Below are positions 37,241 to 46,792 of a DNA stretch of 64,000 nt, piece after piece. Source of the stretch: Earliella scabrosa (taxonomy: Eukaryota; Basidiomycota; Agaricomycetes; Polyporales; Polyporaceae); the NCBI GenBank assembly GCA_022605405.1, contig JABYQQ010000001.1:558001-622000 (forward strand), read 5' to 3'. Each line of letters begins with the position of its first letter. Position 1 is the first letter of the stretch. Under the pieces are notes generated by a model. That model was given only the letters and a program-made list of their open reading frames with translations. It did not search any database and had not been told where the DNA came from. Position numbers and translations under genes: made by a program.

Positions 37241-37248
37241 CTATACCT
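37241..37248. repeat. Target-site duplication, left copy
   Basis: CTATACCT directly precedes the left tip of the transposon and is repeated exactly after the right tip at 46785-46792. An 8-bp duplication agrees with the Zisupton branch of KDZ elements. Confidence 0.92.
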
Positions 37249-37316
37249 CACCTGATCATCACAACATCCCGGATCAACTAGCCTGCCAAGCACCCCCCCT
37301 TTTGCCTAGCTAACGA

Positions 37317-37385
37317 AGCCAGAAGGCTTATCCCCCGCTCACTGCCAATAGCACTGGCAGTAATTCCTGATTCCCTTGTTGGGAA
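37317..37385. repeat. Cluster of subterminal palindromes in the left TIR
   Basis: Three hairpin-forming motifs occur in 69 bp: AGCC-agaa-GGCT (37317-37328), ACTGCCA with TGGCAGT (37341-37361) and TTCCC-ttgtt-GGGAA (37371-37385). The same motifs are mirrored in the right TIR. Subterminal palindromes often serve as transposase-binding sites; that role is inferred. Confidence 0.7.
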
Positions 37386-37860
37386 ACACTACCTCCCGCC
37401 CTATATCCCATCAACTCCCTCTCTTGCCGAGCTCTCGCCGGCCATCCCCGAGTCCCCCTCGTAGCCGAGGAGGAGTAGTGCATCAGCGCCCTTCCTCGGC
37501 TATCGTCCGCCCTCCCGCCACGCTCGCATCAGCCCGCCTGCGCGCCCATCAGCCCGCCCGCGCGCTCATCGTCTCCGCGCCCTTCCCGCCGCTGTCTCCG
37601 ACAGCGAGCTCGCTATCTCGGTCAGTTCTCCTCCGTTTCGCTCCATTCTTTTTGTATTACTGTACTTATTACTTCCGCGAATACAATGGTGCATGCGTCC
37701 TTACAATAGCAGCGCTACACGGAGGAGGACTCGGGGCGGGGTGGAATTGGGGGAGAGTGCCAAGGCACGCTCAGCCACCGGCATCGCGGCCATGCACGGA
37801 TGGCGTCATCGGCCCAGACGCTGTGCCTGATGAAGGCATGGAATCATCAGGTAAGCTGAT

Positions 37861-37913
37861 GCGCGCACCGGCATTGAACGGCATGTCCTGCGCGCACCGG
37901 CATAGAACGGCAT
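37861..37913. repeat. Direct repeat pair near the inner TIR edge
   Basis: Two 24-bp copies (37861-37884 and 37890-37913) differ at one position and are spaced by 5 bp. Both are mirrored in the right TIR. They resemble iterated binding sites. Confidence 0.75.
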
Positions 37914-38076
37914 CCCCGCCCTCGCAGCGCGCGCGCCCTCCCGGTCATCGCATAGCGCGCGGGACCCTCTACCTCTACTGATCATCTTATCACTAGTATT
38001 TGCACATGTTAGTTCATGTACTTACACCCGCACAATGTATAGACATGCACGCTTCTCCCTCAAGTGGAGGTTCGCC

Positions 38077-41000
38077 ATGGCACGCAACGGCGGAGTATCA
38101 CGCAAGATCACTATTCTCGGAGCCACAGGGCGCAGCAAGCACCGCGTCGGGGGTCCCAAGAAGCAAACCGTCGGCATCAAAAAGTTCCCTGAAGCTCAAC
38201 AAAAGGCCCATGAGGACTACCAGAATCTCATACATGGTAGGAATGGGGTAAGACTCTATACCATTAGCTAACCGGTATACGGTACACAGGCCTGAGTTCG
38301 AAGAGCCGCCGAATCCTTGCGGAACTGCGTCACGATGACACCGAGGTCGCTCCAGATCGAGACGAGCAAGTCGAGATGATGATGGTGGGCGATAGCCAGG
38401 ACTGGGAGGACGTGAACGAGCCCGGCAGCATGGGCGTCGCGAATGAGGAGGCGGTTGCTGCCGCACTTCGCGATCTACTGGACGCCCGGTAAGCATTAAG
38501 GTTTGTATGCGATCGCTTCTGAATCTCACGATGTCATAGGCTCGGCTATCGGCAGTATAAGGACAAGCGAACATGGAGAAATCGTATTGAGACCATGGAC
38601 GCACGCTGGCAAGAACTTATGCCACGCATTATGGTGGCATATCTACAATGGAAGTACCGCACCACCCCTTCTCGTGAGCCCACCCCACCCGCGCAGGAGA
38701 ACGCCACACCGACCGAAGAAGAGGTCCCTGATGCTCAGGCTCAAACCGGCTCCCCCGACTACGATCTCGATCTTGATTGCCTTGACTTCTACACTCTCAA
38801 GAGCACCCTTCATGTTCCCCGCACCTCCTCTCACAGTCCTGCCGAGGCCCTCGTGCTCCATGGTTTTCTTGGTGCGACTCCGGACAATCCCTCCATAGCT
38901 GTCTCGTTGGAGACGCTGGAACTGTTCCGCGACATTCGTCGCTTCAAAGCCTCGTATAGCGTCGAAGCGTTCACCAAGCTGCTCTGCTACAGATATTATG
39001 TTTGTAAGATCAATACCCCAATGAATCCCTATCTAACTGCACGTTCTAGATCCCCTACCGTCGACGGTATCGAAAGGCAATATCCGACGCGTTTGACGTC
39101 TACCTGACGTTGATGGACGCAGTCGACAAGAAGGTTCAAGGAGCTTTAGGGCGCGGCGCAGACCATTGGCGTGCACGTCATGCATGTCCGGCATGTAGCT
39201 ATAAGGTGTGCGCCTCGGCTCGCTGCCGGATGTTGAGATACTGATGGTGCCTGAATATCAGGTCGAGGGCGAACGGCCGCCGGTCTTCGAGCGTATGATT
39301 GTGATGGACGGCAATAACTCGCTCAAGCGTATGGGTTCCGTCGGCAATCGCAAGGTCGGAGACACCCGAACATTTCACAGCGACTACTACATTCCCCAGG
39401 AAGAAGTCAATCAATTCGCTAATGAAGTGAAGTCTCGACAAACACAGCCACACGTCGAGGTCCCGGTCGCGGACGACGATGACGCCGAGGATGCGGAGAT
39501 CGAAGATGGCGATCCCACTGACGGAGCCCCGGCCTCGGCATGTGCAAGTAACTGGAAGGCTGCCGCGGCCGACGAGAAAAAGAAGATGTGGGCGATATTC
39601 GAGGAGACGGGCGTTTTTGCCTCGGCCTGTCGGCATGGCTTCATACTCTGGCTCATTGATATGATCCGGAGTGGTGAGCTGTAAGTGTCATTGGTATGGC
39701 CAATTCGCATGACTCATTTCAATTGTTGAAGTGCCAAGCTTCCCCTGGCAACTTCGAACCGAGTTCTCACCCTTCTGCAAGGCCCGATTATGATCGGGTT
39801 CGACATCGGCTGTACGTTCAAGACGACTCTCCTGGGTAGCAGCTTGGGCGAGACATTCAAAACATCGGGGTGTCAGGTCTGTGTGAATGCCTTCCATGGG
39901 TATTCACATTCCTATCCCTGCCAACTGGAGAACCATCCCAATATCATCCGCGGCATGGGGCTGGAAGATCTCGAGACACTCGAGCGCATCTTCAGCGCCT
40001 CGAACAATCTGGCGATCGTCACTCGCTACGCGTCGGCATATCGGCGCCACCTGTTCCTCCACACGTACTTCCGTCATTGGGATGAAGAGAAGTACGCCAA
40101 TCTCGGGACCATGCTCTACAACAATTATCTGCAGGCCCTCGATATCATTCGTTCCAAGACGCCCGTTGTCGAAGAGTCCCTCCAGTCTCTCCAGCTGACT
40201 CGGGATGACCTCGCCTCTTTCGAGCAGGACGAACGCGCCTACTTCAAGACACTTCGTGACGAACTGCCGTGGGATGTTCATGCCGTCGCGTACGTCGAGG
40301 CGCTACAAGAGCTTCGCACAGCATGGTAAGTGTTCATTTGATCATAAGCACTCGGCATTGATGGTATGTCTTAGCGAAGCCCTGGGAATAGCCGACGACC
40401 GGTTCCTGGAGGCTGTGCCGAGGAACTATCAGTGGGCGTCCCCGACTACCGGTCCGACGGACTACAACGTCGATGTCTCTGCTACCAAGAAGCTCGAAAC
40501 GCGCCGTCGCGAACTGGAGGAGACAGTCAGGCGTCTCACAACCCGCGTTATTGCCCTCGAGGTCGAGCTACAGATCAGCGTGCGATGGCAGCCCGGCGAT
40601 GTTCAGTTCGAAGAAACTCGGAAGTATATTGCCACGCGGAACTATCAACAGGCGCTCGGACGTCTACAGCGACTGGTAATTCAGCGGCTCTTTGAACTAC
40701 ATAAGTTGAACATCTCTCAAACAGGTGAGTAGCGTCTTGGTGTTATTGGATTCTAATGCGACATCTGACATATTGTACAGCATACCGGATGCGTACGCAG
40801 ATCGCGAAGAGTCTGCAGAAGAGATGCAAGGCAATCCGTACAGCAGTTCGACAATATAACGACGCGGCTGCGGCGTTGACACCCCCCCGTCCGCCGCTGG
40901 ACTGGTCCCAGGTCTCGCACTTCAGCTTTCTCGAGGAGTTCACGCTGTTGCAGGACACACGGAACGATATTCGCGAGAAGAAGTGGGCCCAACCCCTCGT

Positions 41001-41538
41001 GCGGGAGACGATGCGTGCAGTCCGTCGTATCACTCGCGCGCACGAAGAAATAGAAGCTGTCAATCGAGAGGCGCGCAGAGTCCATACGTCCATTCATGAC
41101 GAAGATCAGCTATTCACACAAGTCCAGCGCGATCTCGAAGCTCGGCGCGACCCACTGTTCGGCGCGGTGAACGATTACATCCGCCGCCGGCGCGGAGTTA
41201 ATGCGCACATCCTCGCCCACCTTCTCCGCCTGTACGCGATCGATGGCTTCTCCGGGGTTCCTTCTCCGGGGGTGCACTCGGGACCTCCCCGCGAAGACGT
41301 CATAGTTCATGATGGTCGGACCCGAGCGGCCCACTCCCCCGGCTCCCTCCCTTCACCCATGGACCTCGATGACACGCAGGATTCTCTTTCAGGACCATCC
41401 GTGGACGTGCTAGCAAGTGCCGAAGCCACAGTGGTAGCTGCAGAGGACGGAGATGACATGCTTGGCGCAGACGAGCACGAGGAAGGCGCAATATCCGACT
41501 TAGTAGAACACATCTCCAACATTGCTCTAGTTATGTAG
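38077..41538 (+). CDS. KDZ-superfamily transposase with CxC1-like N-terminal region
   Basis: Eight exons (38077-38236, 38290-38488, 38540-38999, 39050-39205, 39262-39680, 39732-40325, 40375-40724, 40781-41538) encode 1,031 residues without stops or frameshifts; the introns are 49-56 nt. The N-terminal half has the CxC1-like pattern (RTWRNRIETM, LETLELFRDIRRFKASYSVE, DAFDVYLTLMDAVDKKVQGA, ACPACSYK). The transposase core follows: VMDGNNSLKR, ACRHGFILWLIDM, GFDIGC (D489), NAFHGYSH (517-524), GLEDLETLER (542-550) and SAYRRHLFLHTYFRHWD. D489 and E549 are candidate catalytic acids by analogy with the RNase H-like fold; this is inferred. The tail is acidic and Ser-rich. The ATG at 38077 has a GCCATGG context; an in-frame ATG at 38035 would add 14 residues. 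It is the first gene of the element and starts just inside the left TIR. Confidence 0.93.
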
Positions 41539-42335
41539 TGATACGCGTTCCGAATAATCGTTAGACAGGTGTCAATTGTGAATGTATACGTCTACTTTGT
41601 ATATTGAATGTGTTACCTCACATTGGGGAGAAGTGCGGCAGGTAGAAATAGCTGCCCACGTTCATCATGCCCGACATTGGCTCGTACCCGCGAGGGACAT
41701 TGGTCCATTCTGAACCCAATATCACTGCTAGCTCCGCCCGTTTCATAACATGCATAGCCTATATATAGTCCTTGAATGTTCGCCCAACAGCTCAGTATAT
41801 ATATTAACGTGTCGTCCTATGGGAGCTTGCCGGACATGCTAACAGATGGTGCTATATGACACCGTTGTTCAGTTCATGGGCAAGGCAATGTACATAAATC
41901 ATCAAAATTGAACTCCTAGTCGGAGTTGTATGCAGGAGTGACTGTGCAAATTTTGGTGGGGTGGGGCGAGGATGCGCACCCGGACGAAGCAAAACATGCT
42001 CTTAAGTGAGAGTGCATTTCGTGAAATGTTGTACCGCGCACACTCCGAACGTGTTGCATCCATGTCGTTCCATGCACAAAGACACACGTCACAAAAATTC
42101 AGCAGCAAACTGTATATTACTGCTAGATTCTGAATCCAAGATTTGAGAGCATTTGGTGGGGAGGATCTCTGGATCGGGTTGCGTTGGTGCTCGGAGGACC
42201 GTTCGAAGCAAGAGCGCTTAAGACACGATCAACTGGGGATCGATCGGCGCCTAGCATTGGTCGCCTCTTGTCGTCCACCATCACCTCCCTCTACTGTCGA
42301 GTCCGTCGCCTCCCAGTCGCCTCTCCCACTTCCCG
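41539..42335. other. Intergenic segment inside the transposon
   Basis: About 800 bp between the transposase stop and the second gene. I see no open frame of interest. It is AT-richer than the rest of the element, with several ATATAT runs near 41,760-41,805, and probably holds a terminator and the promoter of the next gene. Confidence 0.5.
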
Positions 42336-43818
42336 ATGAGGATCAACGTCGAGAACGGTGCACCACGGACGGCGGGGCCCTACTGGGTCGTTCTGAGCCC
42401 GGATGGCCAGACCAACGGCATCCATGAGTATCACCGGTACGTGCTTCCCCCAGCGGCTCGATCTCATCGAAGCACATACTGATTACGTCCAGGCCGGAGC
42501 GGATGGCCATCGAGCGCCACCCCGACCTGCTTCCCATCGTCGTGACATGCGTCAACTACGAGGATGCGTGCGATGTCAACCGGCTCAATGAGGAGATCTT
42601 CGCGAACGCCCCCGTCAACGACTACGCTTACCTCCATGCCCGATTCAACGCGAGCCAGTATCTCAAGCAGCTCCTCCGGAACCGTGGGTACAAGAAGCAT
42701 CACTGTATTCGTATTGGGATCGAGACCGGCATCTGGGTCGGCTTTGAGTGGTGCGTCGCCCGGGTTCTCTCTATTCCCACGAGAATCACTCACTCTTTAA
42801 CAGGCCCAACATCGATCACTTCACGGACTACAAGGGCGCGAAGTATCAAGGCTTCGCGGCGTTCAGCGACGCCCTCCAGTGGATGATCGAGAAGCAGCCG
42901 CACATGTCCCGGGCGCCTCGGACTGGTCCTCCATCGCAGAGGATCCTGCCAGGTACCCCATCCAAGGCTGCCCCTGTCTCCGCTGCTCAGGCTGTGCCGG
43001 CCCCCACACACGCTACTCCGGCCTCCACTACTCCCACATACAGCATCCCCGTCCCCACTCCATCCGAACTCGCGTGTCGGACGTCGGTTGGCACCGAACT
43101 GCGCCTCGACCCCGCTTCGCAGGCTCTTTACGACAGGATCTTCCCACCCGGGACCGCTCCCTACCTCGGGTCGTACAGCGTCTCTACCCCGGTCGCCCAC
43201 ACGCATGTCAAGCCCGAGCCCGCGGACGTCAAGCTCGAACAGCTTGACTTCGAGCTCGAGACCGGCAAAGTCAAGCCTGAGCACCTCAACGCCAACGTCA
43301 ACGCGGGCGGAAGCAACATGGTGGGCTACGCGAGCCCTCTCAAGGACAAGGGCAAGGCGCGCGAGAGAGAAGGACCCACGGTCACCATCGCAACGCTTGG
43401 TGCCGTGGTGGCGCCGCCGCCGCCGCCGCCTCCAATCGCTGGACCGGAGCGTGCTCAGATGGCGTCATGTACGTACTCTTTGCCCGCACCAGAGGCTAAT
43501 GTACTGATCTCTCCCACAGTCGTCCAGATGATGATGCAGGCTCTCCCAGAGGCGACAGCCGGTTTACGAGCTGTCATCCGGCCTCTTCCATTGCAGGACC
43601 CGCTGGGGCCGACCACGCCTGCCGTCACGTTCGGCGCTCAAGCTGATGAGTGGCTCAGCAACCACGACATCGACGGGTACTTCTATCTAGACATCCTCCG
43701 CGCCCGCTTGTACAGCATCAACCGGCGTGCGTTTGCGTTCACCATGAGGGAGATGGGATGGAGCGAGGACGATTCCAACGCGTTCTGGGACCTCGTGGAG
43801 CTGCCTGGCGTTGAATAG
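42336..43818 (+). CDS. Transposon-borne viroplasmin / RNase H1 N-domain-like protein
   Basis: Four exons (42336-42436, 42493-42750, 42804-43468, 43520-43818) encode 440 residues. The N-terminal third is a folded block (YWVVLSPDGQTNG, VVTCVNYEDA). It leads into residues about 103-150, where CIRIGIETGIWVGFEW and then FTDYKGAKYQGF and DALQWMIEK match the caulimovirus viroplasmin / RNase H1 N-terminal pattern, in which GI..tW is followed by gaKYkgF and a final helix. This fold binds RNA/DNA hybrids or duplex RNA in other proteins. A Pro/Ala/Thr-rich linker follows, with three psi-K-x-E motifs (residues 255-279) and a six-proline run, then a C-terminal helical domain (DEWLSNHDIDGYFYLDILR, GWSEDDSNAFWDLVE). 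The last intron (51 nt) is in frame. Conservation beside a KDZ transposase suggests a role in mobility or regulation, but the biochemical function is unknown. Confidence 0.8.
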
Positions 43819-44026
43819 TCTGTGTCATGTGTATCTTGTCCGCCGTACTGTGGTAATGTCATCTGTGTGTGTGTGCGTCCCCCAGCGACTGGTGCTTGGC
43901 GCAATGCCCATGTCACGTGAGAGTGTTGAGAACTGGAGGGCTGCCACATCACACCCACGCTGTCATCACGCCGTGCTTCTCTTCCCACCGACGCCCACAA
44001 AGAACAGCCCCACGTTCTCGCGCCTC

Positions 44027-45828
44027 ATGCCGATTGCTAACGAGAGCGGCGTTCTCAAGTTGTCCAACAAGGACCGCAAGCCTGGAGGTTCTCGCACGAC
44101 CAATCCGACGAGGGAGCGCAGAAAACGCGCCAAGCCGTCCGACGAGGACCAAGCAAGGAAGCAGCAAGAGCGCGACGAGCGCAGGGCGAAGTTCGAGAGC
44201 GCGTTGGCTGGTGCACGCAAGAGCCTCTGGGATCTCGTGGTCAATCTGCACGAGCAGTTCCCCGAGCGCACCGAGGACTGGTTCTTCCAGTACCTCACCA
44301 TGCAGCCGAAGGTCACCCAGACGCAACGCGACATCACGGATTGGAACGCTTTCATAAGCATCGAGACGGAGAAGCTCAACAAAGGTACGTAATTACTTAT
44401 TGTACTGAGATTTTCTCGCATTCACCGTCGTGGCGCACACCGGTAGCCAAGGAGAAGGAAGGAGGCGAGAACGCCGCGTTGTCCCGCATCCGAGTCGGAA
44501 GCAAGGAGCTCAACGACATGCTGACCGCCAAGTGGGCAGCCATGTCAGCGGAGGAGAGGAAGGCGTACACTGCCGACAAGGTCGCCGAACTCACGAAGCG
44601 TCGGGAAGATCGCAAGGTGGGCGTCCGGAACACCCATCTAGCCGCCTTCCATGACGTCCGAAGCACGGTCGCTTCCCTACACAAGGAGGTACGCGCCAGT
44701 ATGCATGCCGATTCCATTCACGCTGCTAACTGCGTGTCCAGTTTCAGAGTTTGTACGAGCGGACCGACACGGAAATGCTATTCATCGCAGTCCGTTCCGA
44801 CCACACGGCATACAACAAGCCCGTAGTGTACTACTCGAGCGACCGTGTTCGGACCTACGTCGAGTCCCTGACCAATGTCAGCGTCATCGATTTTGGCATC
44901 AGAATGGAAGCCTACTGCATCGGCGGTATCGACGGTAAGTCCCGTTCGCTTCCCATTGCCATAATGCCGCGTTGACATATAGAAACTTTATTAGTTGTCG
45001 TTCGCAACCAACTGGCCGAGACGCTGGCTGCAAAGTCCAAGGCGTCGTCCCTGCTTTTGTCTCTGATCCGTACGTACATATTCTTGGGTTACTGACACTC
45101 TGATATGTATCCATTGTGCAGAGAAAACATGCACGCGCGGCGTGATTCTTCGCATGTACTACGAAAACTTCGACTATCACATCACCCTCAAGCACGGAGT
45201 TGTGCGCGGAGTATGGCCGCTCCTCGACTTCAAGAACCCAAGCTCGATGTCCCGCATGGAGGTCGAAGTCCTCCTCCATGCACTCGAGAGCGGCGCCGCG
45301 GTCTTCCGCTCCCTATCTGATGTGGAGTGGAAGGCGTGGGTCAGCAACTACTACGCCGACGGGGACCCAATGCCGAACCCAGCGGACAGCTCGGCGATGA
45401 TCCCAATCGACACCATTCCCGACCCCCTCTCTGACATCACGCCCGCATCGACTAACACTGAGCCTATCGTCGGCGAGAAGCGACCTGCCGAGGACGTGGA
45501 CACACAAGCAAAGCGGCCACGCATCGACGCAACTCCGGCGGCCGTCAATGTTCAATTCGTCCACGCTGTTGCTCCTATGGGAGACAGCGCCTTCCAAGCC
45601 CCGCTCGCTCCACAGGGCGCACGCCCGATGCGCAAGGTTCGCAAGGACAAGGGAGTCAAGCGCGGCCCTCGCAAGAAGTCCAACGAGAACGCCGCGCCCG
45701 TCGATGCTGCCCCCAAGAAGGCGCCGCCCAAGCCACGCAAGGTGCAGCGCCAGGCCGCCTCCGAGTCGGAGTCCTCGTCTTCGGTTACCAGTGCTCCTGG
45801 CGCCGCCGCCGCTGCCGCCACCGCGTAA
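44027..45828 (+). CDS. Transposon-borne basic protein of a mushroom-expanded family, HMG-like segment
   Basis: Five exons (44027-44384, 44447-44688, 44742-44934, 44995-45069, 45122-45828) encode 524 residues. Features in order: a basic N-terminus (TRERRKRAKPSDEDQARK); a helical segment (KWAAMSAEERKAYTADKVAE) that resembles part of an HMG box; AFHDVRSTVASLHKE; a strand-rich block (EMLFIAVRSDHTAYNKPVVY, VIDFGIRMEAYCIGGID); a second block (RMYYENFDYHITLKHGVVRG, WPLLDFKNPSSMSRMEVEVL); and a long basic, Ala/Pro/Lys-rich tail with a bipartite-type nuclear signal (EKRPAED...AKRPR). The family recurs in mushroom genomes, in my recollection often near KDZ elements. It is probably nuclear and DNA-binding, but its function is not established. 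An alternative acceptor at exon 4 would insert four residues. The ATG at 44027 is chosen because the conserved region begins there; an upstream in-frame ATG near 43,913 is possible. Confidence 0.8.
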
Positions 45829-46031
45829 GGCTTCTATTCCCCATTCCCTCCCCTACAACTATGGTATCATTTGTCCCTTCTGCGCTGGCGGAGCTCGTGT
45901 CCCTGCGCGTGCCTCCTGTCTCTACTCGGTCATCGTATGTCCTCATTATCTGTAGTACTCAGTACATACAGTGCGCTGGAATATCATGTCATGGCTTTCA
46001 ACACGTCGCGCGTGACGGGCGCGAGGCGCGA

Positions 46032-46081
46032 GGGCGTAGTGCGCGCCGTCGGCTTACTTACTTAGATATTGCGCGCACTAC
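46032..46081. repeat. Hairpin just inside the right TIR
   Basis: GCGTAGTGCGCGC at 46032-46044 pairs perfectly with 46069-46081 across a 24-nt loop. It lies directly inside the right TIR, and the left TIR has only a diverged counterpart. Confidence 0.7.
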
Positions 46082-46096
46082 GCGTTGACCGAGCGC

Positions 46097-46784
46097 GCGC
46101 GCGCGCTGCGAGGGCGGGGATGCCGTTCTATGCCGGTGCGCGCAGGACATGCCGTTCAATGCCGGTGCGCGCATCAGCTTACCTGATGATTCCATGCCTT
46201 CATCAGGCACAGCGTCTGGGCCGATGACGCCATCCGTGCATGGCCGCGATGCCGGTGGCTGAGCGTGCCTTGGCACTCTCCCCCAATTCCACCCCGCCCC
46301 GAGTCCTCCTCCGTGTAGCGCTGCTATTGTAAGGACGCATGCACCATTGTATTCGCGGAAGTAATAAGTACAGTAATACAAAAAGAATGGAGCGAAACGG
46401 AGGAGAACTGACCGAGATAGCGAGCTCGCTGTCGGAGACAGCGGCGGGAAGGGCGCGGAGACGATGAGCGCGCGGGCGGGCTGATGGGCGCGCAGGCGGG
46501 CTGATGCGAGCGTGGCGGGAGGGCGGACGATAGCCGAGGAAGGGCGCTGATGCACTACTCCTCCTCGGCTACGAGGGGGACTCGGGGATGGCCGGCGAGA
46601 GCTCGGCAAGAGAGGGAGTTGATGGGATATAGGGCGGGAGGTAGTGTTTCCCAACAAGGGAATCAGGAATTACTGCCAGTGCTATTGGCAGTGAGCGGGG
46701 GATAAGCCTTCTGGCTTCGTTAGCTAGGCAAAAGGGGGGGTGCTTGGCAGGCTAGTTGATCCGGGATGTTGTGATGATCAGGTG
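46097..46784 (-). repeat. Right terminal inverted repeat
   Basis: Reverse complement of the left TIR from the tip CACCTGATCATC inward to a GC dinucleotide run, which is a few units longer here than in the left copy. Confidence 0.93.
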
Positions 46785-46792
46785 CTATACCT
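46785..46792. repeat. Target-site duplication, right copy
   Basis: CTATACCT directly follows the right tip and is identical to 37241-37248. Confidence 0.92.

What the first reader, a model, noticed from the sequence alone, without database searches (positions are those of the whole stretch)
37249..46784. Complete, apparently recent KDZ transposon with long TIRs and three intact genes
The sequence shows directly a 9.5-kb unit with about 688-bp near-identical inverted ends, a perfect 8-bp target duplication and three uninterrupted spliced genes in one direction. KDZ transposases are a known superfamily with 8-bp duplications reported for the Zisupton branch. A complete copy with both ends, duplication and accessory genes defines the exact unit of mobility, which degraded copies cannot. 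It may still be active.
Basis: partly seen in the sequence, partly recalled or inferred. Interest (0 to 1): 0.92.

Follow-up and report, generated by a model that had tools for sequence, protein, structure and literature searches.

The report
Three-gene KDZ jumping gene, recently mobile
A wood-rotting fungus carries three almost identical copies of a 9.5-kb jumping gene at three unrelated places, each between its own 8-base duplication; besides its predicted DNA-cutting enzyme the element carries two partner genes that recur in seven related families of the same genome and likely help it move or stay switched on.

Summary
The window (Earliella scabrosa, Polyporales) holds a complete 9,536-bp KDZ transposon at 37249-46784 with terminal inverted repeats identical for 688 bp and the 8-bp duplication CTATACCT. 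The genome has two more full-length copies with unrelated flanks and their own perfect 8-bp duplications. The window and C7 copies are identical; the C11 copy differs by three bases, none changing a protein. Two related empty sites of the C11 insertion carry its octamer once. So it moved recently; present activity was not tested. Gene 2 (RNase H1 N-terminal-type domain) and gene 3 (probable HMG-box protein, weak MADS-like lead) recur in the same order in seven more KDZ families of this genome. Six of these have both ends, 8-bp duplications and 601-750-bp repeats. The trees of the three genes have one shape, and all three genes look selectively constrained. It is a known superfamily and, in the papers I could search, an undescribed three-gene variant. 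The partner proteins' roles (binding or bending the ends, shielding from silencing) are inferred.

The parts
37241..37248 (.). left 8-bp target duplication CTATACCT
   Evidence: read directly; equal to 46785-46792
37249..46784 (+). complete KDZ transposon, 9,536 bp
   Evidence: two further full-length copies on C7 and C11
37249..37961 (+). left terminal inverted repeat (first 688 bp identical to the right one)
37249..37266 (+). terminal 18 bp CACCTGATCATCACAACA, shared without mismatch by the Win, C8b and C18 families; first 14 bp fit CACCWGRNCATCAC in all eight families
37462..37504 (+). inverted pair TAGCCGAGGA / CCTCGGCTATC inside the repeat, conserved in three families; candidate protein-binding site (inferred)
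37540..37567 (+). 28-bp block without a mismatch in three families; candidate protein-binding site (inferred)
38077..41538 (+). gene 1, KDZ transposase, 1,031 aa; exons 38077-38236, 38290-38488, 38540-38999, 39050-39205, 39262-39680, 39732-40325, 40375-40724, 40781-41538
   Evidence: PF18758 at aa 334-582, E 1.9e-76
42336..43818 (+). gene 2, RNase H1 N-terminal-type protein, 440 aa; exons 42336-42436, 42493-42750, 42804-43468, 43520-43818
   Evidence: identical to NCBI protein P0006; PF01693 above cut-off in 3 relatives, not in this protein
44027..45828 (+). gene 3, probable HMG-box protein with basic tail, 524 aa; exons 44027-44384, 44447-44688, 44742-44934, 44995-45069, 45122-45828
   Evidence: HMG below Pfam cut-off, fold comparison of a relative
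46072..46784 (-). right terminal inverted repeat
46785..46792 (.). right 8-bp target duplication CTATACCT

Best explanation
This is a complete KDZ-superfamily DNA transposon, present as three near-identical full-length copies at unrelated sites, that likely moves by its transposase cutting at the inverted ends and inserting across an 8-bp stagger, with two co-inherited partner proteins predicted to assist. Shown: the exact unit, the 8-bp duplication at all three copies, a single octamer at two related empty sites of one copy, open genes, and the same three genes in the same order in seven further families of this genome with gene trees of one shape. Inferred: the transposase uses an acid triad (D341, D489 and one of E543/E546/E549, all invariant in eight families). 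Gene 3, an HMG-box-like protein with a basic tail, would bind and bend the long repeats (conserved blocks at 37462-37504 and 37540-37567) so that the two ends can be paired. Gene 2, with an RNase H1 N-terminal-type domain, would bind RNA-DNA hybrid or double-stranded RNA made from the repeats and so regulate the element or blunt silencing.
Confidence: 0.8

Rival explanations
1. Genes 2 and 3 are anti-silencing or regulatory proteins only, comparable to the silencing regulator of plant Vandal transposons or to fungal transposon-encoded TET/JBP enzymes, with no part in the cutting reaction.
For: Long identical repeats should give double-stranded RNA (inference); gene 2 has an RNase H1-N/caulimovirus-type domain. 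Kojima 2025 names the Vandal regulator and TET/JBP as precedents for transposons that counter silencing (PMC12730594, introduction read).
Against: Gene 3 looks like a DNA-bending domain, and the repeats hold conserved blocks that suit end binding; neither excludes regulation.
Confidence: 0.35
2. Genes 2 and 3 are host genes carried along by chance.
For: Fungal KDZ elements are said to carry accessory genes often (PMC12477816, passages). Gene 2 also has two loci without a KDZ match nearby.
Against: Gene 3 occurs only beside KDZ in this genome (10 of 10 loci); the order and the tree shape are the same in eight families; dN/dS is low.
Confidence: 0.05
3. The three copies come from segmental duplication or misassembly rather than transposition.
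For: The C1 and C7 copies are identical over 9,536 bp, as a duplicated assembly piece would be.
Against: Homology stops exactly at the repeat ends, the flanks differ, each copy has its own octamer, and the C11 octamer is single at two related empty sites.
Confidence: 0.02

Closest known systems
Cryptococcus neoformans KDZ1, KDZ2, KDZ3 (PMC12810828; passages and section 6 read)
   Same: KDZ transposase, about 9-11 kb, inverted ends, 8-bp duplications (KDZ1; 4-8 bp for KDZ2 and KDZ3), shown to move in culture
   Different: repeats of 139-241 bp against 688-713 here; a CxC1 domain is reported there and is only weak here; no such partner genes are named in the passages read
TET/JBP-bearing Kyakuja, Zisupton and Dileera of fungi (PMC12730594; abstract, sections 1 and 3.2 and passages read)
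   Same: KDZ transposase with a second conserved gene inside a complete element; CA..TG ends
   Different: the two Kyakuja families have 7-bp duplications and no terminal inverted repeats; here 8 bp and long repeats. No TET/JBP domain appears in the Pfam scans of the three proteins
Zisupton of fish (cited in PMC12730594 and PMC12477816; original paper not read)
   Same: 8-bp duplications and terminal inverted repeats
   Different: branch membership not tested here, no reference sequence was available
Giant KDZ elements of Ectocarpus (PMC12477816, passages)
   Same: large KDZ elements; the paper says that KDZ elements often carry accessory genes in fungi, citing Iyer et al. 2014, which is not held here
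   Different: algal, up to 30 kb; the gene pair is not named in the passages read

Membership tests
KDZ transposon superfamily | KDZ transposase domain PF18758 | tested here: met
   257 bits, cut-off 26.6, E 1.9e-76, aa 334-582
KDZ transposon superfamily | 7-8-bp target duplication | tested here: met
   8 bp, perfect, at three copies and at six relatives
KDZ transposon superfamily | conserved catalytic acids | tested here: inconclusive
   candidate acids are invariant in eight families, but the assignment is by pattern and recall, with no solved relative found
CxC1-KDZ transposases | CxC1 domain PF18802 | tested here: inconclusive
   13.7 bits on one exon, under the cut-off of 26.9 and not listed for the whole protein; C319 and C322 invariant in eight families
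Kyakuja as described by Kojima 2025 | 7-bp duplication, no terminal inverted repeat | tested here: not met
   8 bp and 688-713-bp repeats
Zisupton branch | position in a transposase tree with Zisupton references | not tested
   no reference sequence was used; 8-bp duplication and inverted repeats fit but do not prove it
TET/JBP-bearing transposons | TET/JBP dioxygenase gene | tested here: not met
   none in the Pfam scans of g1 and g3 (E up to 1) or g2
RNase H1 N-terminal domain proteins (gene 2) | PF01693 above its cut-off | tested here: inconclusive
   above the cut-off in 3 of 5 gene-2 proteins scanned; window protein 14.7 bits against 21, P0012 no match; 5 of 5 rows of alignment A1 match at E up to 1
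HMG-box proteins (gene 3) | HMG box by profile and by fold | tested here: inconclusive
MADS-domain proteins (gene 3, later part) | PF00319 or fold | tested here: inconclusive

The most novel reading that the evidence does not exclude
A lineage of KDZ transposons that is an obligate three-protein machine: a transposase, its own HMG/MADS-like architectural factor that assembles the 600-750-bp repeats, and an RNase H1-N-type protein that binds the hybrid or double-stranded RNA those repeats make and blunts RNA silencing, so that each element brings its own cofactor and its own shield.
Probability: 0.2. Interest if true: 0.72.

Novelty: new variant of a known kind. Interest (0 to 1): 0.5.

Why it matters
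Nine complete elements of seven families, plus one element with a single recognisable end, sit in one genome and share an end motif, an 8-bp duplication, very long repeats and a three-gene set. That defines the unit of mobility for this branch of KDZ. It also supplies a family of near-identical copies for an activity test. And it makes a clear question testable: why does a transposon keep an HMG-like and an RNase H1-N-like partner over such depth, when its transposases have diverged to under 50% identity?

Tried and rejected
Segmental duplication and misassembly: rejected by distinct flanks, octamers and related empty sites.

Empty site of the window copy: the joined flanks found only themselves. 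The C7 join matched a repeat on its left side but nothing across the joint.

Short non-autonomous copies: the end motif, which I derived from these same elements, gives 31 places. Of these, 18 are the paired ends of nine elements, one is C31 and 12 are single places (control with the pattern reversed: 3; about 6 expected by my own equal-base arithmetic). No short pair was seen; more diverged ends would be missed.

One origin of the gene trio on the 129-row KDZ tree: not decided. The label needs 6 changes and starred branches force 5, but the unlabelled rows were never checked for the partner genes, so they are not absences.

Repeat blocks in the four more distant families tested: of 24 tests only one short arm (C8a) was matched as well by no more than 1 of 200 shuffles; for the 28-bp block 6, 10, 10 and 52 of 200 shuffles did as well.

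MADS-like part of gene 3: fold and profile hints without any Pfam match in 4 of 4 pieces; a lead only. The host's own MADS genes were located but not read.

The first g1 model stopped early; two donor sites were moved. The gene-2 fold from a single sequence was useless (mean pLDDT 37). PDB sequence searches gave one match at E 0.59, the HMG domain of PMS1, for gene 3 and none for g1. The bacterial-type promoter scan does not apply to a fungus and found nothing. The literature search was badly chosen and listed nothing on KDZ. That this gene pair is undescribed rests in an open-licence library, mostly as listings; Iyer et al. 2014 is not held.

Full report
OBSERVATION. The unit is exactly as described. 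The arms 37249-37961 and 46072-46784 are inverted copies. They are identical for 688 bp, and 707 of 713 positions agree over the full arm. CTATACCT stands directly outside both ends. The ends read CACCTGATCATCAC...GTGATGATCAGGTG.

COPIES. A genome-wide search with 688 bp of the left arm found 12 places. Six are the arms of three copies: the window (C1), C7:1927251-1936786 and C11:438515-448050. Five belong to two diverged families (C8b, C18). One is a short 72% match at C23:418899 that I could not assign. All three copies are 9,536 bp. C1 and C7 are identical; C11 differs at three positions (window 37792, 41526, 43425), and the three encoded proteins are the same in all copies. The duplications are CTATACCT, AAACTGTC and ACTTTGTG, and the 1-kb flanks have no match with one another at E <= 1e-3. 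The tool warns that counts are lower bounds. I give no age.

EMPTY SITES. The C11 copy sits in a repeated sequence, and its joined flanks match four other places across the joint. Two of the four (C8:1104682, 92%; C30:359615, 87%) carry ACTTTGTG once. The other two (C8:954682, C12:533201) share a 10-bp gap that starts inside the octamer; I cannot say whether that gap has anything to do with the element. No empty site was found for the window or C7 copies.

SPECIES. The g2 model is identical over 440 aa to P0006, hypothetical protein C8Q76DRAFT_789089 of Earliella scabrosa. It is listed on 3 contigs, the longest of 5,425,013 bp, which is the length of the window's contig. The species is in Polyporaceae, Polyporales.

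A THREE-GENE LINEAGE. Gene 3 has matches at 10 loci of this genome, and all 10 lie within 10 kb of a KDZ match. Gene 2 has 12 loci, 10 of them beside KDZ. Of 83 KDZ loci (129 matches joined at 3 kb), 10 carry the trio. They fall into eight families: the window family (3 copies), C8b, C18, C9, C1b, C31, C8a and C19. In all eight the order is transposase, gene 2, gene 3 in one direction. Six of the seven other families have both ends: lengths 9,792-10,712 bp, repeats of 601-750 bp at 96-99.8% identity, and perfect 8-bp duplications (GAACTTCC, TTGCCTTC, CCCAACGC, CTACACTC, GACCACGA, AAAGTGAC). C31 shows only its right end. The gene models of the relatives come from a simple splice aligner of mine and are rough. 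Starts were not fixed for the transposases of C8b, C9 and C1b, gene 2 is only partly covered in the distant families, and C8a has one in-frame stop in its transposase model, real or not. Fourteen other KDZ loci were sampled, ten of them as pieces of about 1 kb; their best scores against the window's KDZ domain are 34-474, the low ones partly because the pieces are short.

CO-INHERITANCE. Trees of g1, g2 and g3 over the eight families have the same topology, every inner branch at 94% SH-aLRT or more and 95% bootstrap or more. Pairwise dN/dS over six pairs is 0.09-0.38 for g2 and 0.10-0.30 for g3; for g1 it is about 0.06 in the three pairs where dS could be computed. Low-identity columns were dropped before counting, which biases these downward, and dS is near saturation for most pairs. 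C9-C1b (dS about 0.6) is the soundest: 0.065, 0.19 and 0.095 for g1, g2 and g3. So the three genes appear to be kept by selection and to have travelled together.

OTHER FUNGI. Gene-3 relatives: 5 proteins (3 of Ganoderma leucocontextum, 1 Cerrena zonata, 1 Suillus placidus). Gene-2 relatives: 7 proteins, 3 of them of Earliella. Transposase relatives: 235 at E up to 1e-30, of which 120 are listed. Each search scored about 8,000 candidates only. In Ganoderma leucocontextum P0041 (g1), P0011 (g2) and P0003 (g3) all list a longest contig of 18,098 bp, so they very likely sit together. In Cubamyces lactineus P0030 (g1) and P0012 (g2) list the same 2,563,643-bp contig. The other gene-2 and gene-3 relatives outside Earliella gave no such match among the listed proteins.

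THE LONG REPEATS. Across the Win, C8b and C18 families the repeats share the terminal 18 bp, an inverted pair TAGCCGAGGA/CCTCGGCTATC and a 28-bp block without a mismatch, while synonymous sites of their genes are near saturation. The natural reading is that proteins bind there. In the four more distant families tested the internal blocks are mostly not above chance; only the end motif CACCWGRNCATCAC holds throughout.

MECHANISM. Shown: insertion of a defined unit with an 8-bp duplication, at three places, recently. Reported for the superfamily: KDZ elements insert into a reporter gene in Cryptococcus, with 8-bp duplications for KDZ1 and 4-8 bp for KDZ2 and KDZ3 (PMC12810828, passages and one section). 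Inferred: staggered cutting by the transposase; gene 3 as partner that binds or bends the ends; gene 2 as binder of RNA-DNA hybrid or double-stranded RNA. That the caulimovirus protein with a related domain suppresses silencing is recalled, not from a call. Whether the element leaves its old site or copies itself cannot be told from one genome.

NOVELTY. KDZ elements, and fungal KDZ elements with extra genes, are known. This conserved pair with repeats of this length was not met in the papers searched, but Iyer et al. 2014, the founding survey, could not be read. I therefore call it a new variant of a known kind.

Noticed in passing
G000 C18:1055230-1065000 and C3:1703001-1712771 (L028, L029): At least 9.77 kb, 99.86% identical at two places, carrying a gene-2-like gene (34% identity) with no KDZ match within 20 kb: perhaps another mobile unit that shares this partner gene.
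   Followed up: partly
G000 C8:954682-954996 and C12:533201-533520 (L050, L051): Two paralogues of the C11 target repeat lack 10 bp starting inside the target octamer; unexplained.
   Followed up: no
G000 C23:421741-422701 and 423440-424400 (L017): A 961-bp inverted repeat at 99.9% identity, near a short match to the element's repeat at C23:418899; the fetched stretch ends inside it.
   Followed up: no
G000 C31:38000-46506 (L018, L019): A related three-gene element with a recognisable right end but no left end in the 20 kb read.
   Followed up: partly
G000, 83 KDZ loci: KDZ transposase matches are abundant in this genome (129 matches, 83 loci), and 73 of the loci have no gene-2 or gene-3 match within 10 kb.
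   Followed up: partly
window 37860-37913: Inside the repeat a 25-bp unit occurs twice at 29-bp spacing, 24 of 25 identical.
   Followed up: no
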